This document shows, piece after piece, positions 23,129 through 35,982 of a DNA stretch of 64,000 nucleotides; within the stretch, counting starts at the first letter, position 1, and each line of letters begins with the position of its first letter. Position numbers and translations under genes: made by a program. Below the pieces are notes generated by a model. That model was not told the origin of the DNA, did not search any database, and saw nothing but the letters and a program-made list of their open reading frames with translations. Origin of the DNA: Bacteroidota bacterium (GTDB lineage: Bacteria; Bacteroidota; Bacteroidia; Flavobacteriales_F; PHOS-HE28); the NCBI GenBank assembly GCA_014584605.1, contig JACTMO010000062.1, positions 62,001 to 126,000 of the forward strand, given 5' to 3'.

Positions 23129-23502
23129 TGGCGGATCCACGGTCGCCCACGCCCCGGCGAAGTGCCGCCGCGCAGACCCGCTCGAAGCAGGACCGGTGGC
23201 GGCGGTCGTGCCAGGCGATCCGGATGTTCTCGCTCGGCTCCGCCTGCGGGAGGGCTGCGTTCGTGCGTGCCGAGTGAGGTCGGCCTAGGGCCTCCGGCCC
23301 GCCTTTGCTTCAAGGCCGCTCACGACGCACGGCCCGTCACACCCGCTGACCCGAGCGGCAAAGAAGCGGGATGCCGTGTTGCGGCCGGAGGCCGCGATGG
23401 GTCTTGCACAAACATCCGGGATCCGTGGCAGGCACTCGGCCCCCGCATGCCCAGCCCCACGCGCCGAACACTTGCGCGATTTGGGCGGCCCGCTCTGGGG
23501 CC
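23129..23502. other. Non-coding island edge
   Basis: About 375 bp, GC-rich, with no credible protein. It has short palindromes (GCGGCC-GGA-GGCCGC near 23394; GGGCC-TCC-GGCCC near 23288) and ends in a hairpin (GCGGCCC-GCTCTG-GGGCCGC at 23485-23504) that abuts the CGCAACAG repeat of the first toxin gene. Confidence 0.5.
23470..23488 (+). repeat. Left copy of 19-bp inverted repeat around the TA block
   Basis: ACTTGCGCGATTTGGGCGG. The reverse complement of 24871-24889 matches it at 18 of 19 positions; similarity continues outward about 14 bp with gaps. Confidence 0.6.
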
Positions 23503-23526
23503 GCGCAACAGAACCGCATTCTCTTC
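23503..23526 (+). repeat. Cassette-end repeat, copy 1
   Basis: CGCAACAGAACCGCATTCTC plus TTC; identical to the copy at 24243-24265. It runs to the edge of the 3' end of the first toxin gene. Confidence 0.65.
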
Positions 23527-23529
23527 AGG

Positions 23530-23823
23530 CTATGGCCCGTACTTCGGGTGCGGCTTGCGCTTGACGTGGATCACACGGTAGATGAACACTTCCTGCCCGT
23601 CGATCTCATAGACCACGCGGTAAGGGAACTTACGTAGCATCGCGTGGCGGAAGTCGCCTTTGCGGACCTGATAGCCGCGCGGATCGGCTTCGATCGAGTC
23701 GTAGCATTCCTTCAGCGCCACCATGAACCGGTCGCCCAACTGCGGGCGGATGGTGTGGTACCAGAAGAAGGCTTCGAGCACATCCTTGGCAGCGCTGCTG
23801 CGCACGACCATGCGATAGCTCAT
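23530..23823 (-). CDS. ParE/RelE-type toxin (TA pair 1)
   Basis: The 97-aa basic protein has the ParE/RelE-fold pattern: helix (AAKDVLEAFFWYHTIRPQLGDRFMVAL), then beta-rich HAMLRKFPYRVVYEIDGQEVFIYRVIHVKRKP. The YRVVYEIDG core and basic tail are typical. ParE proteins poison gyrase and RelE relatives cleave mRNA; the target cannot be told here. Its start overlaps the antitoxin stop by 4 bp, a classic translational coupling. About half of its residues match the second toxin at 24270. Confidence 0.87.
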   Translation of the reverse strand: MSYRMVVRSSAAKDVLEAFFWYHTIRPQLGDRFMVALKECYDSIEADPRGYQVRKGDFRHAMLRKFPYRVVYEIDGQEVFIYRVIHVKRKPHPKYGP

Positions 23824-24053
23824 TTCTTGATCATCTCGCGGGCCATGCGCTGCACTTCCTCCCAGGTGTAGGAACTGCCTTCTCCGCGCAAGCGTTCGGC
23901 CCGCAAGGATTCCAGTTCGGCCAGTTCTTCCTCACTGATGTCGCTGTCCTCCACTTCGGTGTCGATCACTTCGCGCACCCGGTCAAGGATGGCCGTGTCG
24001 CGAACGGCCAGCATGCGCTGCACCAGTTCGAGCTTGATCGCTGCGATGTCCAT
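23820..24053 (-). CDS. Antitoxin of TA pair 1
   Basis: The 77-aa acidic protein (MDIAAIKLELVQRMLAVRDTAILDRV...) has an N-terminal helical segment and an acidic ISEEELAELESLRAERLRG stretch typical of the addiction-module component family next to ParE toxins. It is transcribed first, overlaps the toxin by 4 bp, and has a TAACTTTA box 19 nt upstream. It is expected to neutralise the toxin and autoregulate the operon. Confidence 0.82.
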   Translation of the reverse strand: MDIAAIKLELVQRMLAVRDTAILDRVREVIDTEVEDSDISEEELAELESLRAERLRGEGSSYTWEEVQRMAREMIKK

Positions 24054-24072
24054 GGCTTCTTGATTGGTCCGG

Positions 24073-24080
24073 TAAAGTTA
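24073..24080 (-). promoter_or_regulatory. -7-like box TAACTTTA of TA pair 1
   Basis: Within CTAACTTTACCGGAC on the minus strand, 19 nt from the antitoxin ATG. TA pair 2 has the same box at the same spacing. Confidence 0.55.
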
Positions 24081-24088
24081 GGGCGGCT

Positions 24089-24244
24089 CTATCCGATCGG
24101 GTGGAACCGGGCCACGTCTTCGGCCAAGCCTTCCAGGTCATTGATCAAGTAGGCTTCCGTGCTGCTCACGTAACGGTGACCCGCTCTGTGCTGCGCTTCC
24201 CGCAGGTTCAGCGTCTTGATCCAGTGCGTGATCACGCTGGCCCG
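24089..24244 (-). pseudogene. 3'-terminal fragment of a tyrosine recombinase gene (copy 1)
   Basis: About 50 codons encoding SVITHWIKTLNLREAQHRAGHRYVSSTEAY...RFHPIG-stop match the C-terminus of the intact recombinase at 28391-29428, including the catalytic His (AGHRY) and Tyr (EAY). Nothing upstream of the SVITHW region is present; the sequence switches abruptly into the cassette-end repeat at 24243. A remnant, or a duplicated attachment region. Confidence 0.8.
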
Positions 24245-24265
24245 CAACAGAACCGCATTCTCTTC
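24243..24265 (+). repeat. Cassette-end repeat, copy 2
   Basis: Same 23 bp as at 23503 (CGCAACAGAACCGCATTCTC...). Here it joins the recombinase fragment directly to the 3' end of the second toxin gene. Confidence 0.65.
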
Positions 24266-24269
24266 CGTG

Positions 24270-24563
24270 CTACGGCCCGAACTTCCTGCTGGGCCTGCGG
24301 CTCGTGTGCCGCACTTGGTACACGAACACCGTGCTGCCTTCAACCTCATACACCACGCGGTATTTCAGCTTGTGCAGCATCGCATGGCGGTAGCCGCCCT
24401 TGCGGACCTGGTAGCCGTACGGATTGGCCTTGATCCTCGCGTAGCAGTCCACCAACGCATCCATGAACCGGTCGCCCGATCCCTTCTTCCCGCGCTCGCG
24501 GTAATGGTAGACCTTCCGCACTTCCTTGATGGCCTTGGGATCGACCTGCAACGTGTACTTCAT
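24270..24563 (-). CDS. ParE/RelE-type toxin (TA pair 2)
   Basis: The 97-aa protein is paralogous to the toxin at 23530 (shared GDRFMDAL, YGYQVRKGGYRHAMLHKLKYRVVYEVEG). It has the same fold signature and a basic C-terminus. It overlaps its antitoxin by 4 bp. The two toxins have diverged well past recent duplication, so the array is old or was assembled from related cassettes. Confidence 0.87.
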   Translation of the reverse strand: MKYTLQVDPKAIKEVRKVYHYRERGKKGSGDRFMDALVDCYARIKANPYGYQVRKGGYRHAMLHKLKYRVVYEVEGSTVFVYQVRHTSRRPSRKFGP

Positions 24564-24796
24564 GCCTTGCGTCCCGTGCGGATCATGCGGATGGATTCCT
24601 CCTCGCTGATGAACTTCACTTTCCCGCTGATCCGGTCGGCACGTTGGGCGTCCAGTTCCGCCACCTCCTCATCGGTCAGGTCGTCCTCCTGCGGCTCTTC
24701 CCGGCGCAGAAGCATGCGGATCGCTTCGAGCACCGTGATGTTCTTCTCCTTGCGGAGCAGCTGCTGGATCTCTGTCCGTAGATGGAGCGCGGTCAT
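24560..24796 (-). CDS. Antitoxin of TA pair 2
   Basis: The 78-aa protein (MTALHLRTEIQQLLRKEKNITVLEAIRMLL) has an acidic DDLTDEEVAELDAQRADRISG segment that aligns with the corresponding part of antitoxin 1. It is first in its operon with a 4-bp overlap into the toxin. Expected partner and repressor of toxin 2. Confidence 0.82.
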   Translation of the reverse strand: MTALHLRTEIQQLLRKEKNITVLEAIRMLLRREEPQEDDLTDEEVAELDAQRADRISGKVKFISEEESIRMIRTGRKA

Positions 24797-24815
24797 GGCC
24801 TGTTGTCTCGTCCGG

Positions 24816-24823
24816 TAAAGTTA
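24816..24823 (-). promoter_or_regulatory. -7-like box TAACTTTA of TA pair 2
   Basis: Same box and same 19-nt spacing to the antitoxin ATG as in TA pair 1, within a shared TCCGGTAAAGTTAG block on the + strand. Confidence 0.55.
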
Positions 24824-24852
24824 GCCCTTCGATAAAGCTCAGGGTGACGGCG

Positions 24853-24875
24853 CTATCCGATGGGATGGAACCGCC
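24853..24875 (-). pseudogene. Extreme 3' end of a tyrosine recombinase gene (copy 2)
   Basis: Encodes only GRFHPIG-stop, the same terminal residues as at 24089 and 28391 (DNA CTATCCGATGGGATGGAACC). Upstream the frame is broken. It sits just upstream of the TA pair 2 promoter, exactly as copy 1 sits upstream of pair 1. Confidence 0.55.
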
Positions 24876-24889
24876 CCAATCGCGCAAGT
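24871..24889 (-). repeat. Right copy of 19-bp inverted repeat around the TA block
   Basis: CCGCCCCAATCGCGCAAGT, inverted partner of 23470-23488; together they bound 1.42 kb holding both TA operons. Confidence 0.6.
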
Positions 24890-24983
24890 CTTCCCGCGCC
24901 TGGGTTCGCGCGGGGCGACTTGTGCGGAGGCTACCTGTCGCCAAGCCACGAATGAGGCTCGCGAAGTCTGCGTCTTCGCTCGT

Positions 24984-25199
24984 TCAGGTGTCCTGCAAGG
25001 GCGGCAGACGGTCGGCATGTGCGGAGGAATAAAGGTGGTCCTCTGGTGAGGCCACGTACCCCTCCACCACGGGGTTCTCGCGGATATGGTCGGTCACCCG
25101 GTCGATCTCCTCGGTCCGCTCCAGCAGCAGCGGCTTGTTGTGTTGCTGCCAGACCTGGTACGTGGTGTTGTTGCTGTTGCGCTCGCCCGCTTCGCCGAA
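24984..25199 (-). pseudogene. C-terminal remnant of a REP-associated (Y1/IS200-like) transposase
   Basis: Open frame without a start. It encodes NNTTYQVWQQHNKPLLLE...IDRVTDHIRENPVVEGYV...HLYSSAHAD, the standard C-terminal region of RAYT/Y1 transposases (usual form QVWQQHN, IHNNPVEAGWV, YLYSSA). The catalytic HUH and most of the Tyr domain are missing. It is not in the ORF track because it has no start. REP-like palindromes lie 110-450 bp to its right, the expected companions of a RAYT. Confidence 0.75.
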
Positions 25200-25311
25200 C
25201 TCAGCGACTTCGACCGCGCGGCCATCAAGCGGACGATCGCCAGGGCGTTGGGCGAGAAGTGATCAGAGACCGCCGGACCTGCCTGCCGGAGGCAGGGGCC
25301 GACGACACTAT

Positions 25312-25335
25312 GGGCACTCGCTGCAAGCGAGCGCC
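25312..25335. repeat. REP-like palindrome R0
   Basis: GGGCACTCGCTGCAAGCGAG...: arms CTCGCT/AGCGAG around GCA. Both arms are changed relative to the other copies (CGAGCT/AGCTCG), yet pairing is kept. Confidence 0.55.
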
Positions 25336-25371
25336 GGAGCTACCTACGGCCTCGCGCTACCCGAGCGCGGG

Positions 25372-25581
25372 ATGGAGAACGCCAAGAAGATGGCCGACGT
25401 GCTCGGTGCCAGCCTGGACTACTTGATGAGCGAGGACGATACCCAGGAGGTGATCGACAACGCCATGCTGCAACGCATCAAGGAGATCCAGCGCCTGGCC
25501 AAGGATGACCAGAACACGATCATCAACGTGATCGATGCCTTCATCCGGGACACCAAGACCAAGAAGGCCTACGCGACGTAA
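25372..25581 (+). pseudogene. C-terminal half of an XRE-family regulator
   Basis: Encodes MENAKKMADVLGASLDYLMSED followed by LQRIKEIQRLAKDDQNTIINVIDAFIRDTKTKKAYAT-stop. This aligns with the C-terminal two thirds of the intact XRE protein at 32374 (VSLDYLVG...IKRITEIQQLSEADRQ...RDAKARKAYT). The first two helices and recognition helix of the HTH are absent and the upstream sequence is unrelated, so DNA binding is probably lost. Confidence 0.7.
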
Positions 25582-25588
25582 TCTTCAA

Positions 25589-25671
25589 GGGCACGAGCTA
25601 CATGCTCGCGCCAGTTAGGGGGCTCGCGCCAGTTTCAGGGGCACGAGCTACAAGCTAGCGTCAGTTATGGG
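25589..25671. repeat. REP-like palindromes R1 and R2
   Basis: Two copies of GGGCACGAGCTACA(T/A)GCT(C/A)GCG(C/T)CAGTTA, with a partial copy (GGCTCGCGCCAGTTTCAGGG) between. The core is an inverted repeat CGAGC...GCTCG. It lies between the XRE fragment and the convergent lipoprotein gene; an equivalent element is at 32713. Confidence 0.65.
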
Positions 25672-26122
25672 GAATTAGATGGAATATGGAATCGGCACCT
25701 AGTTCTAACTCCCAAGTGTACCAGTCCAGCATCACATCCTGATCCACCCCAACTACAGCACAAGTCTCTCCCGTTGCCGAATCGAACAGCCATTCCGCGT
25801 TCGGCTTATAGTAGTAGTATATGCAATGACCGGCATGCAGGGCTGTCTTTGACGGTTGCGATTGATTGAACGGCGGCCTGTACTCCAGGAAGATAGAAAC
25901 TGAGTCTCCAAGTACTTCTGCGGTGACAATCACCGCGTTTGGTCGGTCGTATGCGTATGGTGATGCGGCTTGGATGAACAAGTCCGTAACGCTGTCTAGG
26001 CTGAGTGAAGCAGCGTTCTTGCGACATGCGATTGGTGCGCTTGGTCCGCATCCGGCCAGTAACGCAACAACACCTAGCGCAAGTCCGATTTTACCTTGTG
26101 ACCTCAACAGCAGGGAGTTCAT
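25661..26122 (-). CDS. Lipoprotein, candidate immunity protein of RHS tip 1
   Basis: The 153-aa protein has a signal peptide and lipobox (LALGVVALLAGC), predicting a lipidated periplasmic or outer-membrane protein. The mature part has no family I recognise. Its start overlaps the end of the RHS tip by about 32 bp. In polymorphic toxin loci the gene directly after the toxin tip usually encodes the cognate immunity protein, so that role is inferred. AT-richer than the host. ATG at 26122; a GTG at 26128 is possible. Confidence 0.6.
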   Translation of the reverse strand: MNSLLLRSQGKIGLALGVVALLAGCGPSAPIACRKNAASLSLDSVTDLFIQAASPYAYDRPNAVIVTAEVLGDSVSIFLEYRPPFNQSQPSKTALHAGHCIYYYYKPNAEWLFDSATGETCAVVGVDQDVMLDWYTWELELGADSIFHLIPHN

Positions 26123-27011
26123 GGACACGCATCATTTCGCGGTCATTGTACATGACCATTAGGCGTGGATTACTCGGAATGAAAATCTCGAAGTAGTCAG
26201 GCACCCGACCGGGATTGTGCTTGTGAAGACTTAGATAGTTCCCACGATCACCGGAAGCCCCAGCTAAGGGCTTGCCGCTAGGACTGAAGCCTGAGGGATA
26301 CGCAGGCCAACCAGTAGTGGAATCGAAAGCGCCAGGATGGCTGTGTGATGTTCGCGTCAGAAGGAGCGTCGGGGATTTACCTAGTACTTTGGATGCCAAG
26401 CTGGCCGTAGGATTGTCAATTGTGCCTTCATCAAATGTTGTTGCCAAGGTTCCTACAAGGGAGCTATTCTCTGCAGTTCCAAACACATTCAATTGCCACT
26501 CTACATTCGTGTGCGTCGCGAAGAATCGATAAGCATCTTCTAGCCCTCGGACATTGCGATTAACGAAGATCGAGTTCGATTTACCTTCAGAAGGTTTCGA
26601 CATTGAACCGAAGTGGCTCTTTATAAAGTCCTTGCTCACCGTCAGAGATTCACCTCCAACTATGCCATCTCCAAAGTCATCGGTAGCGAAGATTCTATCA
26701 AAGGCATCGTCTGTTTCTCGAATAAGAGTAAGCGAACCATCCTGCCCGAGTGAGTAGTCATCTTCGAATGCCCCGTTGGGATCCACATGCTGAATAGGGG
26801 AATCAAAGAAGGCCCTATATGGGGACCAATCTGGCGCATTTGCACTCAAAGGATCCACATTCCACCTTCTCGCCACTCTAGGATCATATTGCCAAAACTC
26901 CGCCGTATAGCTGGTCCCTTCCGCTCCGTATATCTCATTGTCCTTCTCCTGTCCCTGGAACCCGAACCGGTAGCTGTCTGAGGAGTAATTCCTCCCGGGC
27001 AGCAGGGAGCC
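26091..27011 (-). pseudogene. Orphan RHS-core C-terminal tip 1 (JAB-like toxin domain)
   Basis: The reading frame opens at GSLLPGRNYSSDSYRFGFQGQEKDNEIYG and continues with the RHS-associated core (FWQYDPRVARRWNVDPLS...SPYRAFFDSPIQHVDPNG), then a variable tip of about 215 residues. The tip contains SHSHPG...ASGDRGN, resembling the HxHP-x-SxxD metal motif of JAB-like toxin domains. The large RHS repeat body and secretion leader are absent. The ORF-track start at 26876 is an internal GTG. The frame is intact from the core to the stop, so expression of a tip is conceivable. AT-richer than the host, suggesting transfer. Confidence 0.75.
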
Positions 27012-27025
27012 AAATGTGAAGCAGC

Positions 27026-27298
27026 CTACCGCACTTTTTCCTGTAATGGCGGGGCTTTCACCCGGCGGGGGTAAAGATTCCGGCGTGGGTCGGTATGTGC
27101 TGCTTCGGTTGTTTCCTTGGCGCGGATCTCCTTGTCGATGGCCAAGGCTTTGGCATTGATCCGCTCCTTGATCTCTTCGGGTGTCTTGTTCTCGATCCTG
27201 GCCACCACTTCGCAGTAATCTTCAAGGATCGCTTTGGAGAGAACGAAGCCCGAACGGAAGCGGGTAAAGTGCATCATTAGTTGATCCATTGGTTCCAT
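27026..27298 (-). CDS. Small hypothetical protein
   Basis: 90 aa, helical and charged (HFTRFRSGFVLSKAILEDYCEVVARIENKTPEEIKERINAKALAIDKEIRAKE). The first ~65 residues look like a real soluble protein; the tail is Arg/Pro-rich and runs over the region just before the RHS tip. No family recognised and no clear promoter. Confidence 0.45.
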   Translation of the reverse strand: MEPMDQLMMHFTRFRSGFVLSKAILEDYCEVVARIENKTPEEIKERINAKALAIDKEIRAKETTEAAHTDPRRNLYPRRVKAPPLQEKVR

Positions 27299-27474
27299 GT
27301 GCGTGTGTTGTTGTTCGGGTAAAGATCCGCATGAGCTGCGACCTGGCAGCGTTGCACGGACCTCGCTCGGAGCTTCCCCCCGTAGAGTAAAGAGCTACGC
27401 CCGGAGCGCATTGCTTGCTGCTTGCACTACGGGTCGATCGAAGAGCGCCGGTGAGTGTCGAGCATGCAAGCACA

Positions 27475-27529
27475 CCATGCGGCACAGCAATAGGCGGCGC
27501 ATTTGGCCGCCTGTTGCTGTGCCGCGTGG
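27475..27529. repeat. Long hairpin with 24-bp stem
   Basis: Arms 27475-27498 and 27506-27529 pair with only two G-T wobbles around the loop GCATTTG; the core arms are GGCACAGCAA/TTGCTGTGCC and AGGCGGC/GCCGCCT. No T-tract follows on either strand, so it is not a standard terminator. Confidence 0.75.
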
Positions 27530-27696
27530 GCCTGCCGGTGCATTCAACCGGCAGGGGTCGCGTGCTTGGCGCGTGGGCTTCTTCGAGCGGCGATGTGTGC
27601 AGGCGTATTTCTGCCCCGGCCCTGCGGGGCACATGGAGGGCCGGTAGAGCGACGAAGGAGCGGAGACGGACCAGTGCGCGCGTTACGGCGGCCGCC

Positions 27697-27733
27697 GCTG
27701 GCCTTTAGGCAACCCAGCGGGTTGCTGGCCAGC
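27697..27733. repeat. Nested hairpin
   Basis: Outer arms GCTGGCC/GGCCAGC enclose an inner GCAACCC-AGC-GGGTTGC stem. Confidence 0.65.
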
Positions 27734-28003
27734 GCTGCGAGGAGGTCCGAGGAGCGACGGCGCGATCCCTTGCCTGTGCGATGGGTCGGCGCACTTCGTG
27801 GGCGCGTGGATCTCTTCTCGCGTTGGCGTCCACGATGTGCGTGTGCGGGCCTGACGCTGGCCGATCGACAAGGGAGCGAACATCCGGCGTCTTCGACGGT
27901 GGAGCCGACCGCGGAGAGAGGCGAGCGGCTGGCCATGGATGCAAGGGGCGTGACGGAGCGAACGGACGCCGACGGCCGGGCGCGCGCAAGCCAGGCGCGC
28001 CGA

Positions 28004-28055
28004 ACCCCTGCGAGCAAGTCCGCGCATCAGCGCGACCGCTATGGGTTGCAGGGGT
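28004..28055. repeat. Nested hairpin
   Basis: Outer ACCCCTGC/GCAGGGGT with inner CGCGC-ATCA-GCGCG. Confidence 0.6.
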
Positions 28056-28141
28056 GAGTAAAGCGGCGACTGAGGGAGTGACGGCCACGGGCCGATCCGT
28101 AGCGTGAAGGACCGAAGGAACGAGGGCCGAACGCGGTGCGA

Positions 28142-28194
28142 TGCAAGGGGCAACCCGCCTCGGGTTGAGCGGGATCTTGGCCGCGACCCTTGCA
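28142..28194. repeat. Nested hairpin
   Basis: Outer TGCAAGGG/CCCTTGCA with inner CAACCCG-CCT-CGGGTTG. Confidence 0.6.
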
Positions 28195-28286
28195 GCGCAA
28201 CGGACGGCACAGGGTGCCGGAACGACCGAAGACCTTTTGGAGGCTACTGCTGCGCCAGAGCTTCAGCGGCGGCGTAGCGTAACGAC

Positions 28287-28313
28287 GCGCGGCCCGCATT
28301 TGGGGTCGCGCAA
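28287..28313. repeat. Hairpin related to the one before TA pair 1
   Basis: GCGCGGCCC-GCATTTG-GGGTCGCGC followed by AACACAAGG. The copy at 23485-23510 has GCGGCCC-GCTCTG-GGGCCGC then GCAACAGAA: same position, same flank, with a wobble-preserving difference in the stem. Confidence 0.55.
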
Positions 28314-28390
28314 CACAAGGCATTTCCCTTGGCTGTTGAGAACTTTTCCAGAGCGCGTATCCGCAACACTTGGTAGCGGATGCGATGCTT

Positions 28391-29428
28391 TCACCCGATG
28401 GGATGGAACTTCCCGATGTCCTCTTGCAACTCGTCCAGGTCGTTGATCCGGTAGGCTTCCGTGCTGCTCACGTAACGGTGCCCGGCCATGTGCTGCACTT
28501 CGCGCAGGTTGTAGAGCTTCAACCAGTGCGTGATCACGCTGGTGCGGATCTGCTTCATGCTCTTCACGCTCTTGTCCTGCTGGTGCAACTTCTCCGTCAA
28601 CTTGAACATGGCGTTATTGATCCCTTGCCCGCTGCCGGTGCTCACGATGAACCGATCACTTGCCTTGCGCGTCAAGGCCAGCAACGCGGGCCGCGCCTTC
28701 AGTTGGTACTCCATCAGGTCCAGGATCTGCGCCGCTTCGAGGATCAGCTCGCGTTCGTTGCTTCTGCGGGTTCCCGCGATGTACACCCTGCCTTCTCTCA
28801 ACTTCAGGTCCTTCTCTTCCAGCCGTGCGATCTCCATCACGTTCAAGCCCTGGAACACCAACAGCCCCACGATCGCCTTGTTGCGCTGATGAGTGAGCGC
28901 ACTGGCGCGGTACCAGTTCTGGTTCTTGTGCTTCTCGTCCTCGGTCCAGGTGTGTTGGTGGTAGAGCTTGTCCAGCCGCTGCCGGTCCAGGATGTCGTAC
29001 AGATGCTTGCGCTGCACGCCTTTGATCGCGACCTGTCGCGTGGGGTTCTCCATCGCTTCGCCGCTGCCCACCAAGTGATCGAACCAATGCCGCAAGCTGT
29101 TCACCGTGGTGCTGATGCTGCGTTGCTTCACCTTGCCGCGCATGCCTTGCACGTAGTGCAGGATGTCCGCGTAGCCCACGTGCTGGATCCCCACGTTCTG
29201 CTGTTCCGCCCATTGCATGAACCGCAAGCTGTCCCGTACGTAACGCTCCGTCGTGCTGCCGCTGTAGCCCTTCCCCAGCAGGTGGTCCACGTAGTCCTCG
29301 ATCGGCCCCGCACTGCGTAACACATCCGCTTCCTTCAACCGTGCCTTGAGTCGCTGGGCTTCTTCCGATCCTACGGCTGTGCGTGCTCGCCCTCGTGTGC
29401 GGCTGTCGCTGCTCTTGCCCAGCTTCAT
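28391..29428 (-). CDS. Tyrosine recombinase 2 with non-canonical catalytic residues
   Basis: The 345-aa protein has a SAM-like core-binding domain (~40-135) and a catalytic domain. The terminal signature AGHRYVSSTEAY supplies His317 and the nucleophile Tyr326, and R295 (QIRTSVITHW) supplies the second Arg. The first catalytic Arg position reads GLNVMEI (Asn196) and the His of HxxR is Lys292. It may therefore be a structural or regulatory partner of recombinase 1, whose stop it overlaps by 4 bp. Two extra copies of its 3' end lie at 24089 and 24853. Confidence 0.9.
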   Translation of the reverse strand: MKLGKSSDSRTRGRARTAVGSEEAQRLKARLKEADVLRSAGPIEDYVDHLLGKGYSGSTTERYVRDSLRFMQWAEQQNVGIQHVGYADILHYVQGMRGKVKQRSISTTVNSLRHWFDHLVGSGEAMENPTRQVAIKGVQRKHLYDILDRQRLDKLYHQHTWTEDEKHKNQNWYRASALTHQRNKAIVGLLVFQGLNVMEIARLEEKDLKLREGRVYIAGTRRSNERELILEAAQILDLMEYQLKARPALLALTRKASDRFIVSTGSGQGINNAMFKLTEKLHQQDKSVKSMKQIRTSVITHWLKLYNLREVQHMAGHRYVSSTEAYRINDLDELQEDIGKFHPIG

Positions 29429-30471
29429 AGCTCGTCCTCGTGCAGTTGCAGGTACTGGCGGCGCGGGATCTTCTTGTAGGGCTGCGGCTTGTGGCTCGGC
29501 TCGATCCGCTCCACCGTCACCGCTTCCTCGTTCCGTTCTGCGGCCACCAAGTGCGTGTAGACCTGCGTACTCTCCAAGCTGCTGTGTCCCAAGAAGCGCC
29601 CGATCTTCTCCAGGTCCATCCCGTTCTGTAGCAGGTGCGTGGCGATCGAGTGGCGCAGCACATGCAGCCGCACGTTCTTGCTCTGTAGTTCGATGTTGTC
29701 GCTGCGCTGTTGCAGGATCTTCAAGCGTAGTGCCATCGTCTGCGTGTCCATGCGGGTTCCCTTCTGGCTGATGAACAAGGCTTCTTCACGCGGCGCTTTG
29801 AGCATCGCGGGCCGGTGGTCGTAGATCCAGCTTTGCAGGTGGCCGCTCGCCGTCTTGTTGAACGGCACCAGACGTTCCTTGTAGTTCTTGCCCTTGCGCA
29901 CGTGCAGCACCTGCTTGTCCAGGTTGATGTCCCCCAGATCCAGGTGGTAGCCTTCGTTCCTCCGTAGCCCACACCCGTAGAAGATCGTGAGGATGGCGCG
30001 GTCACGCGCGGCGATGGCCTCGGGCTGCCACACGCCCGGCGCGGGCGTTCCCGGATCGGTCACGCGGTAGAGCTCGTGGATCTCCTCCTGGCTCAGGTGC
30101 TCGATCGTGCGCGTGTCGTCGTTCTCCCATTCGATCTTCAGGTGCGGCAGCACCAGCCGCCCGCTCTCGCGCAAGTACTGAGTGAACTTGTAGAGCGCCT
30201 GCAGGTGCTTGTTCAAGGATCCGTTGCTGAGCCCTCCGCCGGTGCGCGTGTTGGTGCGCTCGCGCAAGTGCGCGAAGTGGTCGTGGAAGTCCTGCACGTC
30301 GATCTGTTCGATCCCCGTGGTGCCCGTGCTTTCCAGGTAGTGCAGGAACTCGCGTGCATGCAGGGGCAGCTTGTACACCGTGCGCGGCGCGTAGCCCAGC
30401 ACGTCCAGCCATTCGCGGAAGGACTGTTCCACGTAGCGGAACGCCTCGCTTTCAACGCTCAGTTGCTTCAT
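29425..30471 (-). CDS. Tyrosine recombinase 1 (XerC/D-like, complete active site)
   Basis: The 348-aa site-specific recombinase has an N-terminal core-binding domain (~1-100). Catalytic residues are visible as R170 (CGLRRNE), K193 (VRKGK), H270 and R273 (LHVLRHS), H296 (FLGHSS) and Y305 (TQVYTH). Middle gene of the ATPase-Rec1-Rec2 operon. The start at 30471 (MKQLSVESE) is preferred; the ORF track allows 15 more residues to 30516. It likely catalyses integration, excision or cassette exchange together with recombinase 2. Confidence 0.93.
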   Translation of the reverse strand: MKQLSVESEAFRYVEQSFREWLDVLGYAPRTVYKLPLHAREFLHYLESTGTTGIEQIDVQDFHDHFAHLRERTNTRTGGGLSNGSLNKHLQALYKFTQYLRESGRLVLPHLKIEWENDDTRTIEHLSQEEIHELYRVTDPGTPAPGVWQPEAIAARDRAILTIFYGCGLRRNEGYHLDLGDINLDKQVLHVRKGKNYKERLVPFNKTASGHLQSWIYDHRPAMLKAPREEALFISQKGTRMDTQTMALRLKILQQRSDNIELQSKNVRLHVLRHSIATHLLQNGMDLEKIGRFLGHSSLESTQVYTHLVAAERNEEAVTVERIEPSHKPQPYKKIPRRQYLQLHEDEL

Positions 30472-30562
30472 GTAAAAAGTTCGATCATGGAGCGTTTCCG
30501 CTCCGGTGTGTCTCACTGGCTGCTGCCCCTACGCTGGCAAGGACTTCAGTACGACAAGCCGC

Positions 30563-32215
30563 CTATTGTCCAACTGATGGCATACTGTCCGGCCCAGCTT
30601 CGTCCTTCTTCTTCCTGGACCGCTTGGGCTGTGGCTGCTCCTTCACTTCTTCCGCCTGTGCTTGTCGTGTTGCATGCGTGTGCTTCACTTGCTCGACCAC
30701 GCGTTGCACCTGCGTCTGTATGCTCTGCTGCAAGCCTTGGTAGCTCTTCACGTCGCGCACCTTGTAGCTGTAGCCGCCCCGGTACTTGTTGCCTCCGGTG
30801 ATCTCCAATAGACCGAACTCGCACAACTCGTTCAGGTAGCGGCCCAAGGTGCGCGGGTGGATCCGAAGCTCCTCGCGCACCGTGCTGGCGAAGAAGCCGC
30901 CTTGCTTGGGATCCGTGGCCCTGCTTCGCTGGCCATCCCAGTTCTTCAGCAGTTGGAAGAACACACGCGACGCGCCGCTCAACTCATCCGCCTTGCGGAA
31001 CAGCACATCCTCCAACAGGTCGAACGCCGCTTCCACGTCCTCCGGGCTGCTCTCGATGAACACTTCCCCGGTCCGCTGGTCCACCTGGTGCTCGCGCTGG
31101 TACTGGTGGAAGAAGGTGATCGCCTCGATGAAGCCCAGCAGCAGCGGCAAGGTGCGGCGCGGCTTGAACACTTCGGCGGGCAGGTCGATCAAGGGCGCGT
31201 AGGGGTTGATCACCGTCACCGGTTCCAAGGCCTGTTGCATCCGCCTCAGCTTCGCTTGCAGCAACGCTTCCTTGCCGGTGTCGATCAGCCCCGCCCGCCG
31301 TTGCTTCTGGTAGTGCATGATCCGCGCGTCCTGCTCCTTGCTGCCGTCCAGGTGGATCAACAGGCTCCGGTTCGCGTTGTCCTCATAGACCTTCTCCCGC
31401 GTGGTGCAACCGATCACGCACACCGGACCTTCCACCACCAGCGTCACCGTCTTCAACGCGCCGCTCTTCTCCTTCACCGTCATGGTCTTGCTGATCCGCT
31501 TCTTGCTCTGCAGCTCCCGGATCGGGAACATCACTTCCTGCGCCCCGTCCAAGTCCTCTATCAAAAACACCTTGCCCTTGATCTCTTCGCGCTCGAAGTG
31601 GTAGAAGCTGGCCCCGGTAAAGGCGGTGTTCTCGCGGATCTCCTCGCTGGGCATGCACCCGGCCACCTTCTCCATCAGGTAGCTCTTGCCCGTGCCGCTT
31701 CCTGCCAGGCAGATCACGCTCAACGGATCATGGCGCTTGCGGCTGCCCATGGCGTACCACAGGATCAGCACGTTCTTCTCTTCGCCCAGGATCCCCGTGC
31801 CGTGCAGGTCTTCCAAGGTGCGTTGCTGCAAGTGCTCGTGTTGCAGGTCTTCGATCGCCGCTTGCCGTTCTTCCGCGCTCAAGGTGCTCACGGGCTTCTT
31901 CTCCTGCGCGGCCTCGATCTTCCCCAGCCGGTGGCCTTCGAGTTGCGCGGTGAGCTCGCTCAGGCTCGCCGCCAGCACGCTGGTGCCCACCTCCAGGCGC
32001 TCGGCCGCCTTGCGGATGAACTTCTCCAGCTGCGTGTCATTGTACAGGTCCAGGTTGTGCCGCATCGGCGGGCGCGGGTTGTCCGGGATCGCCACCTTCA
32101 GCGTCACCCGCATCCGGTCCAGGCCTTCCAGCTTGATCCCGCCCAGCACTTCCAGGTGCAACAGCGGGTTGTGCAATGCCAGCGTGCCGGCGGGTCCTTC
32201 GATCAGGTTGGACAT
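30563..32215 (-). CDS. AAA-type ATPase of the mobile element (primase/helicase-associated family)
   Basis: The 550-aa protein has Walker A AGSGTGKS (171-178), Walker B-like KVFLIEDLDG (~215-224) and a later conserved CVIGCTTREKVYEDNANRSLLIHLD (sensor/arginine-finger region). A winged-helix-like segment lies at ~430-500 (REELRIHPRTLGRYLNELCEFGLLEI), followed by a basic tail. It resembles the ATPase half of primase-like proteins in mobile elements but lacks the CHC2 zinc finger and toprim. First gene of the operon; probably assists replication or recombination of the element. Exact role unknown. Confidence 0.72.
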   Translation of the reverse strand: MSNLIEGPAGTLALHNPLLHLEVLGGIKLEGLDRMRVTLKVAIPDNPRPPMRHNLDLYNDTQLEKFIRKAAERLEVGTSVLAASLSELTAQLEGHRLGKIEAAQEKKPVSTLSAEERQAAIEDLQHEHLQQRTLEDLHGTGILGEEKNVLILWYAMGSRKRHDPLSVICLAGSGTGKSYLMEKVAGCMPSEEIRENTAFTGASFYHFEREEIKGKVFLIEDLDGAQEVMFPIRELQSKKRISKTMTVKEKSGALKTVTLVVEGPVCVIGCTTREKVYEDNANRSLLIHLDGSKEQDARIMHYQKQRRAGLIDTGKEALLQAKLRRMQQALEPVTVINPYAPLIDLPAEVFKPRRTLPLLLGFIEAITFFHQYQREHQVDQRTGEVFIESSPEDVEAAFDLLEDVLFRKADELSGASRVFFQLLKNWDGQRSRATDPKQGGFFASTVREELRIHPRTLGRYLNELCEFGLLEITGGNKYRGGYSYKVRDVKSYQGLQQSIQTQVQRVVEQVKHTHATRQAQAEEVKEQPQPKRSRKKKDEAGPDSMPSVGQ

Positions 32216-32246
32216 GGTTCGGAGTGATCAGAAAAAGTTCGTTCAG

Positions 32247-32267
32247 CACTTATCTGCTGCAAGTGTA
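32247..32267 (-). promoter_or_regulatory. Candidate promoter/operator of the recombinase operon
   Basis: CACTT-ATCTGCTGC-AAGTG inverted repeat overlapping a TACACTTG -7-like box (32267-32260, minus) upstream of the ATPase start at 32215. Confidence 0.4.
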
Positions 32268-32324
32268 GCATATCGGCTTGATACGACCAAGCACACCCGC
32301 TTCTTCCTGCACCCATCTGCTTCG

Positions 32325-32332
32325 TAGTTTCG
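32325..32332 (+). promoter_or_regulatory. -7 box TAGTTTCG of the XRE gene
   Basis: 42 nt before the XRE ATG. A palindrome CTGCATTTGCAG at 32341-32352 lies just after the expected transcription start and is a candidate autoregulatory operator. Confidence 0.5.
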
Positions 32333-32373
32333 CGCTGCTGCTGCATTTGCAGTGCATTCAACAACACTTCGGT

Positions 32374-32706
32374 ATGAGCACCTTCGGCAAGCGCATCACC
32401 GCCGCACGCAAGGACAAGGGACTTTCCCAAGGCGACCTGGCCAAGAAGATCGGCACCATGGGCGTGGTCCTGGGACGCTACGAACGCGATGAGGTGAAGC
32501 CCTCCATCGAAGTGGCCGCCAAGATCTCCCAGGCCCTGGGGGTCTCCCTCGATTACCTCGTGGGCAACTCCGAGGTGCTCCTGGACAAGGACCTGATCAA
32601 GCGCATCACCGAGATCCAGCAGCTATCCGAGGCCGACCGACAAGGCATCTTTTTCGCCCTCGATGGGCTCCTCAGGGATGCCAAGGCCAGGAAGGCCTAC
32701 ACCTGA
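32374..32706 (+). CDS. XRE-family transcriptional regulator
   Basis: The 110-aa protein has an N-terminal HTH_3 domain (FGKRITAARKDKGLSQGDLAKKIGTMGVVLGRYERDEVKPSIEVAAKISQALGVSLDYL) and a C-terminal tail IKRITEIQQLSEADRQ...RDAKARKAYT. It is divergent from the ATPase-recombinase operon with 158 bp between starts, the usual layout for a repressor that controls element excision or transfer. A truncated relative lies at 25372. Start at 32374 by the HTH boundary; the ORF-track start is upstream of the promoter. Confidence 0.88.
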   Translation: MSTFGKRITAARKDKGLSQGDLAKKIGTMGVVLGRYERDEVKPSIEVAAKISQALGVSLDYLVGNSEVLLDKDLIKRITEIQQLSEADRQGIFFALDGLLRDAKARKAYT

Positions 32707-32712
32707 TCTGTT

Positions 32713-32747
32713 GGGGCACGAGCTGCAAGCTCGCGCCAGTTTCGGGG
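32713..32747. repeat. REP-like palindrome R3
   Basis: Core GCACGAGCTGCAAGCTCGCG flanked by GGGG on the left and CCAGTTTCGGGG on the right. Perfect CGAGCT-GCA-AGCTCG inverted repeat, 7 bp after the XRE stop and before the convergent lipoprotein gene, mirroring R1/R2. Confidence 0.7.
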
Positions 32748-32793
32748 AAGGCGTATGCGTAGCTGGATCGCCCATCCGCGATAGCGGTGGGGG

Positions 32794-33327
32794 TCACATG
32801 ATAGTTTCAGCAATCCACAGCACACGATTGCGTTTGTCCAATATATACGTTCTAGCCTTGCTCGGATTGTTGATGTCGGGCCAATAATGAGCTGCGTGTA
32901 CGACTTGGGCGGTGTCGCTTAGTAGTAATCTGATAGTCGCAAGCTTATCGCTTAGAACGGGAGATCTGGTAAAGTATCTAGCTGTCAAAGCGTAGACCTG
33001 GTTACTATCTAAGTTGATGAGGCCTATGCTCCAGGGTATGGAGTGCCATGAACCCAGCCTTGACAATGATGGGTCTGTGTGAAAGTTGACAAGGAAGCTA
33101 TCTACAACGGCAGGTTCAAGCACATAGCGCTCCAAAGTGAACCCTTCGCCTTGAAGGCCTATACCATCTGACCATGAGGTTTCGTCAATCGGTTGAACAT
33201 CCGGGACACCAAGTACGACTGGCAATGTGTCTTTGAAGTGACCCTGTTGGCACGAAACAGAACACAATACCAGTAAGATGAGAACCCAAAGACGCAAAGC
33301 ACCCAAGGCTAAAATTTCGGCCCCCAT
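32794..33327 (-). CDS. Lipoprotein, candidate immunity protein of RHS tip 2
   Basis: The 177-aa protein has a hydrophobic leader and lipobox (LVLCSVSC). No family recognised. The mature part is mixed alpha/beta and AT-richer than host genes. Its start overlaps the RHS tip 2 stop by 19 bp, the same arrangement as at 26122. Immunity or accessory role inferred from position only. Confidence 0.6.
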   Translation of the reverse strand: MGAEILALGALRLWVLILLVLCSVSCQQGHFKDTLPVVLGVPDVQPIDETSWSDGIGLQGEGFTLERYVLEPAVVDSFLVNFHTDPSLSRLGSWHSIPWSIGLINLDSNQVYALTARYFTRSPVLSDKLATIRLLLSDTAQVVHAAHYWPDINNPSKARTYILDKRNRVLWIAETIM

Positions 33328-34214
33328 AAGCCTGGATTATGGACTGGTGCAGGCGGCCGTTGACGAACTCTTCCTGTCCCATAGCCGCGTATTTGGAACC
33401 CTATGCCGTTACCCGCAACCGCGCCACCAATGGCTGTTGCGATATTTCGACCTGTTCGCCCAGGTTGCTGCTCAAAATCATAGGTATCGATGAGTCCGTT
33501 GTTACTCCCTATGCGAACATCAGTTGCCGTAGTCCTCGTCAATAGGATAGTGCCGTAAACCAGTCCGGTTTCCAAATTAGCGTTCGAGAGAGAGGCGAAA
33601 TTCACAGGTACTCCTTGTCCCAGCGGGAGTTCATCGCTAAAGACAGGAGAAAGATCAATCTGGGCGGCATCCACAAACAGAGGCTGGCCATTACCCGTTC
33701 TAAACCATTCGTTTGCCTCTTCCAAGGTTAGCTGTCCATCGTAGTCGGGTCGGGAGTTGAGCGAAGTATGAGTCCGAACCATACTCATCCTCGCTTCCGC
33801 ACTCGCAAAGCCATTGAGCCAGCCCTTATCAAGCTTCTGAGCATCCTCATGCTTCATGCCCTGCTTGAAGTCCTTACTGTCCATCACTATCGCGTCCCCT
33901 TGAAGACCCTGGTCATCCGTACCTAAAAGGTCGCCAGTTGCAGAGTCGTATATTGGTGAGTCATTCGCACCGTTGGGATCGATGTTGGTGATGAACTTGT
34001 TGCTGAAGGCGTGGTAGGGGGACATCCAGGGCTTGTCCACCGGATCCAGGTTCCACCTCCGGGCGATGCGCGTATCGTACTGCCAGTACTCGGCGGTATA
34101 GCTGGTGCTTGTGGCCCCGTAGATCTCATCGTCCATTTCCTGCCCGCCTGCCGCACCGAAGCGGTAGGTATCGCTTTGCCAATTGCGCCCGGGTAAAAGA
34201 GACCCGCCCCGCAT
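33309..34214 (-). pseudogene. Orphan RHS-core C-terminal tip 2
   Basis: Begins at GGSLLPGRNWQSDTYRFG, the same point of the RHS core where tip 1 begins. It continues through EIYGATSTSYTAEYWQYDTRIARRWNLDPVDKPWMSPYHAF into a tip of about 200 residues (…LIDTYDFEQQPGRTGRN…) that differs from tip 1 and that I cannot assign. An ATG happens to precede it, so a 301-aa product is possible. It stops at the terminator of the OmpA/TPR gene, marking the island edge. Confidence 0.7.
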
Positions 34215-34224
34215 GCCCCGAAGC

Positions 34225-34257
34225 TAACGAAAAGCCCCCGGCCGGGGCCGGGGGCTT
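34225..34257 (-). terminator. Terminator of the OmpA/TPR lipoprotein gene
   Basis: Perfect AAGCCCCCGGCC-CC-GGCCGGGGGCTT hairpin with TTTTCGTT on the minus strand, 22 nt after the stop at 34279. Confidence 0.85.
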
Positions 34258-34278
34258 GGCGAACGATCGGGGCCTGGC

Positions 34279-35982
34279 TCAGATGCCCAGGTTATCCTTG
34301 AAGGCCCGGAATTCCAGGTCCTTGCGGGCCTTGTCGGCCAGCTTGGGATCCTTCTGCACGGCCAGGGCCAGTTGGTTGCGCACCATGTCGCCGTTGTTCT
34401 GGCGGGCGCCGCAGATGGCCATCAGGTAGTGGCCCTCGGCGGTGTCCTTGTCGGGGCTGGCCTCCAGCATGCGCTGGGCGGCGGCGGCATCGCCGCTGAG
34501 CAGCTTGGCCAGGGCGCTGTTGAAGTCGTTCACCCCGCTGAAGCTGCTGTTGGCGCTGCCGTAGTCCCCGTTCTGGATGTGCACGATGCCCATGTTGTAG
34601 TTCACCTCCGGACCGGCGGCACCGGCCTTCTTGTAGAGTTCCATGGCCTTCTTGCGGTCGCCTTTCAGGCGGGCGCAGGCACCGAGGTTGTTGGTGCTGA
34701 TGGGGTTGTCCTGGATGCTGTTGGCCTTCTGGAACTGGGCCTCGGCCTCGGCCAGGCGGTTCTGCTGGTAGTGGATGTAGCCCACGTTGTTGGCCCCGCG
34801 GTGGTCGTTGGGGTAAATGCGCTCGGCCTCCTTGTAGATGCGCAGCTGCTCGTTGAGGTCGGTGGTGAGCGTGGCCGCGAAGAGCAGCTCCTCGATGGTG
34901 AGGCTGTCGGGCATGGTGCGGCTCATGGCGGTGAGCTGCTCGTCGGTCTTGCCCACGCGCTCGTAGTTGAGCTTCACCTCGCTGCGGCGCAGCTGCGGCA
35001 GGATGCTCTCGCGGATCTCCTGGTAGGTGGCGGCCATGTTCTTGATCTCGGCCTCGCGCTTGTTCACATCGGGGTACATGCCCAGCACGCGCAGCACCAG
35101 GTCCTTGTCGCCGAAGCTGCTGGCCTTCATGGCACGCTCGAAACCGTCCCAGTCCTCGCCGTGGCTGGTGCTGCTGAAGAGCGAATCGCCCTTGGCCAGC
35201 TTGTTGCGGCCCAGCTCGGTTTGCAGCCAGCGCATGGCATGCTTGTCGCGCTTGTTGGCCAGCCCCTCGTTCATGTCCACCTCCCCTTCGGGCGAGGCGT
35301 AGGCATCGATGCGGATGCTCTTGATCACCACGTTCGGGTTCTTGGCGTTGGCCTTGAGGAAGTCCTGCATGGCCTTCACATCCGCGTCCTTCAGGTCTCC
35401 GCTGACGGGCACATCGCTGGCCACGTTGTAGTTGAGCTGCAGGTCCTGGCTGTGCTGGGTGATGCGCTGGAAGGCATCCTTGGCCAGGATGACCTTGTCG
35501 TCACCCTTCACCAGGAACGGGGTGGTGATGACGCCATCGGCGATCTTCACCGGGTCGAAGGGCTTCTCCTTCTTGCCCTGCTTGCCCAGGATCCGGACCA
35601 TCAGTTCGCTGGTCTCCATGCCGGGCACGTAGGCCACCTTGTCGGCGTAGTTGAAATCCTTGCCGCTCTCGTAGGGGATCACGGTGTAGTTGCCCGCCGC
35701 GCCCTCGCCTTGGAAACCGGCCATCTTCAGCGGGGTCTCGCCACCGGCGTAAGTGATGGCGGGGGTGAGCTCCACCAGGGCTTTCTTGTAGAAATACTTG
35801 CCCGGGAAGTTGCCCCGGATGTTCACCGCCACGCTGTCGCCTTGAACGATGAGCGGGTTGGGATCGACCGTGTACTTGATGTTCTCGGCGTACTTGGTCA
35901 TTTTGCCCAATCCGCCGCAGCCGGCAAGAAGGAGGGCTGAACCGGCCAGGAGGGCCGCACCGCGCAGGGGGACGTGCTTCAT
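34279..35982 (-). CDS. OmpA-like/TPR outer-membrane lipoprotein
   Basis: The 567-aa protein has signal peptide and lipobox (AALLAGSALLLAGC). A beta-rich N-terminal half, an OmpA-like segment with AYASPEGEVDMNEGLANKRDKHAMRWL around residues 225-255, and a C-terminal TPR region (IYPNDHRGANNVGYIHYQQNRLAEAEAQFQKA…) follow. It probably links the outer membrane to peptidoglycan or works with a Bacteroidota OM complex; partner unknown. The start at 35982 follows a perfect -7 box. Confidence 0.85.
   Translation of the reverse strand: MKHVPLRGAALLAGSALLLAGCGGLGKMTKYAENIKYTVDPNPLIVQGDSVAVNIRGNFPGKYFYKKALVELTPAITYAGGETPLKMAGFQGEGAAGNYTVIPYESGKDFNYADKVAYVPGMETSELMVRILGKQGKKEKPFDPVKIADGVITTPFLVKGDDKVILAKDAFQRITQHSQDLQLNYNVASDVPVSGDLKDADVKAMQDFLKANAKNPNVVIKSIRIDAYASPEGEVDMNEGLANKRDKHAMRWLQTELGRNKLAKGDSLFSSTSHGEDWDGFERAMKASSFGDKDLVLRVLGMYPDVNKREAEIKNMAATYQEIRESILPQLRRSEVKLNYERVGKTDEQLTAMSRTMPDSLTIEELLFAATLTTDLNEQLRIYKEAERIYPNDHRGANNVGYIHYQQNRLAEAEAQFQKANSIQDNPISTNNLGACARLKGDRKKAMELYKKAGAAGPEVNYNMGIVHIQNGDYGSANSSFSGVNDFNSALAKLLSGDAAAAQRMLEASPDKDTAEGHYLMAICGARQNNGDMVRNQLALAVQKDPKLADKARKDLEFRAFKDNLGI

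What the first reader, a model, noticed from the sequence alone, without database searches (positions are those of the whole stretch)
28391..32706. Element core: ATPase plus two overlapping tyrosine recombinases, divergent from an XRE repressor
The ATPase, recombinase 1 and recombinase 2 are consecutive on the minus strand. The two recombinases overlap by 4 bp, and all three are divergent from an XRE gene with palindromes in the shared 158-bp region. It lacks the zinc finger/toprim of primase-type elements, and the layout differs from the three-recombinase RIT elements. I believe related recombinases occur in other Flavobacteriia, but I know of no named system with exactly this gene set. A paired-recombinase mobile element is the simplest reading.
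Basis: partly seen in the sequence, partly recalled or inferred. Interest (0 to 1): 0.72.

Follow-up and report, generated by a model that had tools for sequence, protein, structure and literature searches.

The report
Mobile cassette that swaps toxin tips
The two recombinases and the ATPase are the engine of a mobile DNA cassette that inserts inside Rhs-type bacterial weapon genes and replaces the toxin end together with its antidote, which gives a testable answer to how bacteria swap these toxins.

Summary
The trio and the divergent XRE gene are real and at the stated coordinates, but they are only part of the element. Across 80+ related loci the repeated unit is: Rhs core + toxin tip, immunity gene, divergent XRE, ATPase (with or without a CHC2/toprim primase), Rec1, Rec2, then an older Rhs tip. 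Units are often in tandem and run with the Rhs gene. Homology between the Rhs gene and the displaced tip starts, in frame, at one of a few conserved Rhs-core motifs (mainly DYYPFG, YGFNGKE, YGARFYDP), and the motif follows the recombinase tree. Modules 85-95% identical carry unrelated tips in 24 of 24 pairs. A natural E. coli allele pair at rhsE (single-XerC relatives) shows the event: flanks 99.6% and 99.8% identical, a shared 15-bp core inside the rhs gene, a new tip attached and the old one pushed downstream. The window holds one intact unit (28391-34214) and decayed ones (to about 23457), with no full-length Rhs gene at this locus. Integrases near orphan toxins were noted before; I found no description of a defined element, its sites or this tip-replacing insertion. 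Activity of the window copy is unproven.

The parts
33309..34214 (-). Tip B: Rhs-core start (MRGGSLLPGRNW...IDPNG) plus variable C-terminal tip; cargo of the intact unit
   Evidence: Rhs-core motif, no known toxin family, position and orientation as in relatives
32794..33327 (-). Putative immunity gene of tip B (small, possible lipoprotein signal)
   Evidence: ORF directly downstream of the tip, the place of the immunity gene in relatives; no family; inference
32374..32706 (+). XRE/RstR-type repressor, divergent from the module (longer TTG start possible at 32278)
   Evidence: NF041951 over cut-off; divergent XRE in 79/84 relatives
32216..32373 (.). 158-bp divergent regulatory region with a 14-nt inverted pair and TGATCA
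   Evidence: operator function inferred
30563..32215 (-). AAA+ ATPase, MCM/RuvB-like fold with a winged-helix-like C-terminus; primase-less version of the CHC2/toprim-ATPase
   Evidence: AlphaFold2 pLDDT 79, Foldseek best MCM2-7, E 1e-10; homologues; variants
29425..30516 (-). Rec1, tyrosine recombinase with the full catalytic set (R185, K210, H285, R288, H311, Y320 of the 363-aa protein)
   Evidence: invariant or nearly so in 89 homologues (numbered there +4)
28391..29428 (-). Rec2, divergent tyrosine recombinase: Tyr326, R295 and H317 kept; Arg I (N196) and HxxR His (K292) lost
   Evidence: numbered there +119; 85 homologues
27024..28390 (-). Element right end (spacer after Rec2) with a 24-nt hairpin at 27475-27529 and an A-tract arm next to the site
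   Evidence: spacer of 0.15-3.2 kb in relatives
27005..27045 (-). Right junction: element arm GGAAAAAGTGCGGTAGGC joined to TGCTTCACATTTGG (YYPFG codon position of the Rhs core)
   Evidence: same pattern in L066 and L102
26091..27023 (-). Tip A: displaced Rhs-core start plus tip with a weak Toxin-JAB1 match
   Evidence: PF15659 19.8 bits, below its cut-off of 21
25661..26128 (-). Putative immunity gene of tip A
   Evidence: position only; inference
25372..25581 (+). Decayed XRE of an older unit
   Evidence: tblastn 39%, E 5e-13
24092..24247 (-). Decayed Rec2 C-terminus of an older unit; another Rec2 end (GRFHPIG*) at about 24851-24875
   Evidence: 73% identity, E 3e-22; second end read from sequence
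23530..24053 (-). ParE/RelE-type toxin-antitoxin pair after a Rec2 remnant; a second pair at 24270-24796
   Evidence: PF05016 and weak PF09720 for the second pair; TA pairs after the recombinase also; membership of the element inferred
34197..34214 (-). Left junction: chromosomal ATG leader joined to Rhs-core codons (ATG CGG GGC GGG TCT CTT)
   Evidence: G005 has a different sequence after GGGGCATGCGG

Best explanation
The trio is the recombination/replication module of a self-mobilising toxin-tip cassette. An excised circle carries [Rhs-core start + toxin tip, immunity, XRE, ATPase, Rec1, Rec2]. Rec1 (full active site), with Rec2 as partner, recombines a short core at the cassette's junction with the same core in the conserved Rhs coding sequence just before the variable tip. 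The incoming tip is joined in frame to the resident Rhs delivery part, its immunity gene comes with it, and the former tip and immunity gene are pushed downstream beyond the module. Repeated insertion builds tandem arrays; decay of modules leaves orphan tips. The AAA+ ATPase (primase-fused in about a third of relatives) probably replicates or opens the circle, and XRE probably represses the operon. Shown by comparison: unit architecture, junctions, in-frame fusion, tip displacement, link of site to recombinase, natural empty and occupied alleles in E. coli. Inferred: circle as intermediate, which enzyme cuts, ATPase, XRE and Rec2 roles, activity of the window copy.
For: Same order and orientation at 80+ loci: XRE 79/84, Rec1+Rec2 83/85, Rhs on the same strand upstream 57/65 and downstream 42/53, never opposite; upstream Rhs ORFs up to 2973 aa, downstream at most 597 aa. 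Junctions start at conserved Rhs-core codons in frame. Site class follows the recombinase tree: 4 changes, minimum 3, shuffled mean 14.1, 0/200 as low; ATPase tree 8. Near-identical modules carry unrelated tips: 0 of 24 pairs homologous at 85-95% ATPase identity. Displaced tips follow tandem units. E. coli rhsE: Ec-U9-1 without and strain 4314 with the array, flanks 99.57%/99.77%, shared core GACCCGATAGGGCTG, old tip and immunity gene at the far end. Window array absent from sister G005.
Against: No experiment. The clean allele pair is from the single-XerC branch, whose XerC and ATPase are only about 27-31% identical to the window's. The window locus has no full-length Rhs gene, so the window copy may be a stranded or inactive array. 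Rec2 lacks two catalytic residues. Unit-sized circular records may be assembly products of tandem arrays.
Confidence: 0.87

Rival explanations
1. Rhs tips are exchanged by ordinary homologous recombination between long core repeats (Jackson 2009 model); the recombinase module is a passenger that happens to sit between tips.
For: Orphan tips carry Rhs-core fragments that could serve as homology; exact tandem copies can be made or lost by RecA; Jackson et al. favour this model.
Against: Breakpoints sit at fixed motifs, with a shared core of about 15 bp; the motif follows the recombinase clade; the module is present between tips in nearly every locus in one orientation.
Confidence: 0.07
2. An ordinary paired-recombinase mobile element whose Rhs neighbours are chance or a preferred landing neighbourhood without functional link.
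For: Gene content of module and XRE; patchy distribution.
Against: Rhs on both sides in the same orientation at most loci; in-frame joints inside Rhs codons; exchange of tips with constant modules.
Confidence: 0.03
3. A resident array-management system: the recombinases mainly shuffle or resolve tips within local arrays, like a shufflon or cassette array, and are rarely transferred.
For: Frequent tandem arrays and deletion-derived cassettes without a module (G365; G645).
Against: Patchy distribution: absent from 44 congeners, in 55/5426 E. coli, in 13 of 396 phylum genomes, and on plasmids, so it also spreads horizontally. The two roles are not exclusive.
Confidence: 0.12

Closest known systems
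Rhs C-terminal tip displacement (Jackson et al. 2009, PMC2935791)
   Same: Old tips displaced downstream with a piece of core; a circular intermediate was proposed.
   Different: [quoted passage not shown] here a dedicated recombinase module and a short fixed core.
Rhs-associated integrases of bee gut bacteria (Steele 2017, PMC5727410) and integrases in orphan cdiA-CT arrays (Ruhe 2016, PMC4927057)
   Same: Integrase genes near orphan toxin tips; site-specific recombination or transfer suggested.
   Different: No element, ends, core site, second recombinase or ATPase defined in the passages read; possibly the same Proteobacterial branch, not tested.
Single-XerC, CHC2 primase cassettes of Proteobacteria (E. 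coli rhsE, P. aeruginosa TpsA2, Lonsdalea; unnamed)
   Same: Tip, immunity, XRE, primase-ATPase, recombinase in the same order; tip displacement.
   Different: One recombinase, often SymE, primase always present in those seen, other core site; the window form has two recombinases and no primase.
RIT elements (three recombinases)
   Same: Consecutive, overlapping tyrosine recombinase genes.
   Different: RIT has three recombinases; here there are two plus ATPase, XRE and toxin cargo.
rAID systems of Bacteroidales (PMC12247911)
   Same: Tyrosine recombinase beside interbacterial immunity genes.
   Different: Array of orphan immunity genes without toxin tips; no ATPase/XRE unit.
Shufflons (Rci) and integron cassettes (own knowledge)
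   Same: A tyrosine recombinase changes the C-terminus of a protein (shufflon), or gathers mobile gene cassettes (integron).
   Different: Shufflon inverts resident segments; integrons need IntI and attC sites. Here each cassette brings its own recombinases and its site is scaffold coding sequence.

Membership tests
RIT elements | Three consecutive tyrosine recombinase genes | tested here: not met
   Two recombinases in 83/85 loci
Rhs C-terminal displacement loci | Displaced tips with Rhs-core fragments downstream of an Rhs gene in the same orientation | tested here: met
   Family level. Window level: two tips, but no full-length Rhs gene at the locus
Rhs C-terminal displacement loci | Exchange by long homology (original model) | tested here: not met
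   Fixed motifs and 15-bp shared core
Integrons | IntI-type integrase with attC sites on cassettes | tested here: not met
   IntI models far below cut-off; core lies in Rhs codons. No dedicated attC search was made
Conjugative or mobilizable elements | Relaxase or conjugation genes in the unit | tested here: not met
   None among the unit's ORFs or annotated units; partners elsewhere not excluded
rAID | Recombinase followed by an array of orphan immunity genes without toxins | tested here: not met
   Units carry a toxin tip plus one downstream small gene
Temperate phages | Relatives in phage or viral genomes; virion genes | tested here: not met
   No match in 50,697 phages or IMG/VR
Active site-specific integrative element | Excision, circular form and recombinase dependence | not testable with these tools
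   Only indirect: circular records of unit size and natural alleles

The most novel reading that the evidence does not exclude
A broad, previously undescribed class of mobile element (Bacteroidota, Proteobacteria and possibly Spirochaetota) whose attachment site is the conserved coding motif of polymorphic-toxin scaffolds, so that each insertion is an in-frame exchange of toxin and antidote; many silent Rhs/CdiA orphan arrays would be its fossil record, and deletion cassettes its non-autonomous offspring.
Probability: 0.6. Interest if true: 0.92.

Novelty: new variant of a known kind. Interest (0 to 1): 0.86.

Why it matters
How polymorphic toxins change their C-terminal toxin together with the antidote has been an open question since tip displacement was described: the 2009 proposal needed an unexplained circular intermediate. 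A cassette with its own recombinase, a fixed core in the Rhs coding sequence and natural empty and occupied alleles makes the process directly testable, also in E. coli. It explains why orphan tips keep a short piece of Rhs core, links mobile elements to bacterial warfare and kin recognition, and gives markers (Rec1/Rec2/ATPase) for finding new toxin-immunity pairs.

Tried and rejected
ATPase in the window's genus and order: none in 44 relatives. Phages and IMG/VR: none. ATPase by family: no Pfam/NCBIfam/PDB sequence match; only the fold is informative. Rfam in 23000-35000: nothing; no tRNA at the site, so no tRNA attachment. Rec2 as an ordinary second Xer partner: rejected, since Arg I and the HxxR His are lost family-wide. 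RIT, integron and rAID membership: rejected (table). Direct repeat at the outer ends (GGGCATGCGG near 34209 and 23450): considered, but both copies also occur in the sister genome without the array, so not used as evidence. Circular contigs: only 2 short contigs have exact terminal overlaps (59 and 127 bp), which tandem arrays could also produce.

Full report
Observation. Both recombinases match XerC/XerD models, XRE passes the RstR model, the ATPase has no family. The 158 bp hold one 14-nt inverted pair and a TGATCA palindrome.

The unit is larger. Beside both the intact XRE and a decayed XRE (25372-25581) lies an Rhs core fragment with a variable tip and a small putative immunity gene on the minus strand (33309-34214 with 32794-33327; 26091-26876 with 25661-26128). 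Decayed Rec2 ends lie at 24092-24247 and about 24851. Read on the minus strand the window is: tip B, immunity, XRE, ATPase, Rec1, Rec2, tip A, immunity, decayed XRE, decayed Rec2 ends with two ParE-type TA pairs. The tip-to-tip period is about 7.2 kb.

Relatives. Searches in plasmids found the ATPase as the C-terminal part of CHC2/toprim proteins, in the order RHS gene, hypothetical gene, XRE, toprim-ATPase, two recombinases, orphan RHS tip, in tandem (Aureispira; Aureibacter pAT2). After the last unit follows a different tip. In 396 genomes of the phylum 13 had it. A scan of GTDB genomes gave at least 510 confirmed relatives, 77 loci kept. None were found in phages or viral contigs. On these loci: divergent XRE 79/84, Rec1+Rec2 83/85, Rhs on the same strand upstream 57/65 and downstream 42/53, none in opposite orientation; 30 of 57 upstream Rhs ORFs have 750 aa or more, the largest downstream one 597 aa. 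Caveat: the Rhs profile was seeded from motif hits in these loci, but the public annotation of L004, L005, L128, L129, L229 and L231 agrees.

Junctions. Where units are in tandem, identity between the full Rhs gene and the orphan tip begins at codons of a conserved Rhs-core motif: TATTATCCTTTTGG or close variants (YYPFG) in G132 and G388, TATTACCCGTTTGG in G109, TATTATCCGTTTGG in G121, with the same reading frame on both sides. A profile of full-length Rhs proteins covers 60 or more residues upstream of this motif in nearly all full-length genes, while orphan tips start at YYPFG, at YGFNGKE or at YGARFYDP; a few apparent earlier starts run through stop codons or element sequence. DNA alignments show an element-side arm with an A-tract followed by the core; tip A of the window fits (GGAAAAAGTGCGGTAGGC TGCTTCACATTTGG). 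On the recombinase tree of 46 loci the site class needs 4 changes (minimum 3; shuffled mean 14.1; 0 of 200 as low), on the ATPase tree 8. The recombinases, more than the ATPase, predict the site. Site classes were assigned by me.

Cargo exchange. Of 24 pairs of units with ATPases 85-95% identical none has homologous tips; of 8 pairs at 95-100%, the 4 with homologous tips are exact tandem copies. Within loci, 32 of 39 comparisons of tip and displaced tip show no homology, 6 are exact copies and 1 is a 12-residue match. In two Flavobacteriia genomes the same displaced tip has different upstream DNA and the alignment begins exactly at TTAxTATCCTTTTGG; one of them holds a cassette from which ATPase, Rec1 and most of Rec2 are deleted while the element end remains.

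Natural empty and occupied alleles. A single-XerC branch (SymE, XRE, CHC2 primase-ATPase, XerC) is present in 55 of 5426 E. coli genomes. At the rhsE locus (ansP to nhoA) strain Ec-U9-1 has an uninterrupted Rhs gene, and strain 4314 has an array of units with the Ec-U9-1 tip and immunity gene at its far end. Flanks are 99.57% and 99.77% identical. Both strains share GACCCGATAGGGCTG at the crossover: the left junction equals the empty allele up to it, the right junction from it on. All unit boundaries in 4314 have this core (to its 14th base), and an 8,758-bp circular record matches one array period at 98%.

The enzymes. Rec1 has the complete R-K-H-R-H-Y set in practically all 89 homologues. 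Rec2 keeps the second Arg, the later His and the Tyr but lacks Arg I (R in 5/85) and the HxxR His (H in 6/85), so it is probably a specialised partner; inference. The ATPase model (pLDDT 79) resembles MCM helicases and RuvB (TM-scores about 0.4, so fold class only). A primase-size N-terminal extension is fused in 34 of 104 units, absent in 70; those printed show CHC2 and toprim motifs. A replication-type role for the circle is therefore likely but inferred.

The window locus. The array lies between 34208 and about 23457, directly after a TPR-protein gene. In sister genome G005 (97% identity of that gene product) the array is absent except for a 40-50 bp Rhs-core scar; G008 and G041 lack it. 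Four other congeners have Rhs tips at this very place behind an ATG leader and GYEPFG-type codons, and a fifth reaches the same leader before its contig ends, so this is a secondary, scaffold-less landing or reservoir site. The only other Rhs gene of the genome (C65) has GYEPFGSLLPGR, a candidate target. The ATPase was found in no other member of the genus.

Literature. [quoted passage not shown] Zhang 2012 mentions XerC/D only beside polyimmunity loci in the passages found. Steele 2017 and Ruhe 2016 noted integrases near orphan modules and suggested a role. Ten searches of the open-access library found no description of the element; subscription papers and most preprints are not held, so novelty is provisional.

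Verdict. The finding is real and more interesting than stated: a toxin-tip cassette with its own recombinases. Shown: architecture, junctions, allele pair, recombinase-site link. Inferred: circle intermediate, catalysis, roles of ATPase, XRE and Rec2, and activity of the window copy.

Noticed in passing
L042 (G365:C7:1-20000): Array of about eight Rhs tips separated by XRE genes and only the first 30-75 residues of the ATPase: deletion-derived, non-autonomous cassettes, at places 86-93% alike.
   Followed up: partly
L224 (G645:C86, 10438-13195): Cassette with the module deleted between XRE and the Rec2 stop codon while the element end is 92% identical to G388.
   Followed up: partly
L007 (P. 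aeruginosa plasmid pPA1609-475) and L006/L127 (Lonsdalea 11,289-bp circle): Same cassette plan with TpsA/CdiA-type scaffolds or nuclease tips, one XerC, and a toxin-antitoxin pair after the recombinase.
   Followed up: partly
window 34215-34280 and the same place in G042, G004, G030, G017, G034, G005: Hotspot of Rhs tips behind a short ATG leader directly after a conserved TPR-protein gene, without Rhs scaffold.
   Followed up: partly
L048-L124, upstream of orphan tips: Element ends often encode an in-frame start such as MGCLKLTY... leading into the Rhs core, which may be the origin of this N-terminus in orphan Rhs proteins.
   Followed up: no
window 25580-25670 and 32713-32750: REP-like repeats GGGGCACGAGCTRCAAGCTCGCGCCAGTT right after both XRE genes.
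   Followed up: no
window 27475-27529: 24-nt, 92% complementary hairpin with a 7-nt loop in the non-coding spacer after Rec2; no Rfam match.
   Followed up: no
L126 (Leptospira noguchii plasmid p6, 13,148 bp): Small circular replicon with an ATPase relative followed by a tyrosine recombinase; cargo not examined.
   Followed up: no
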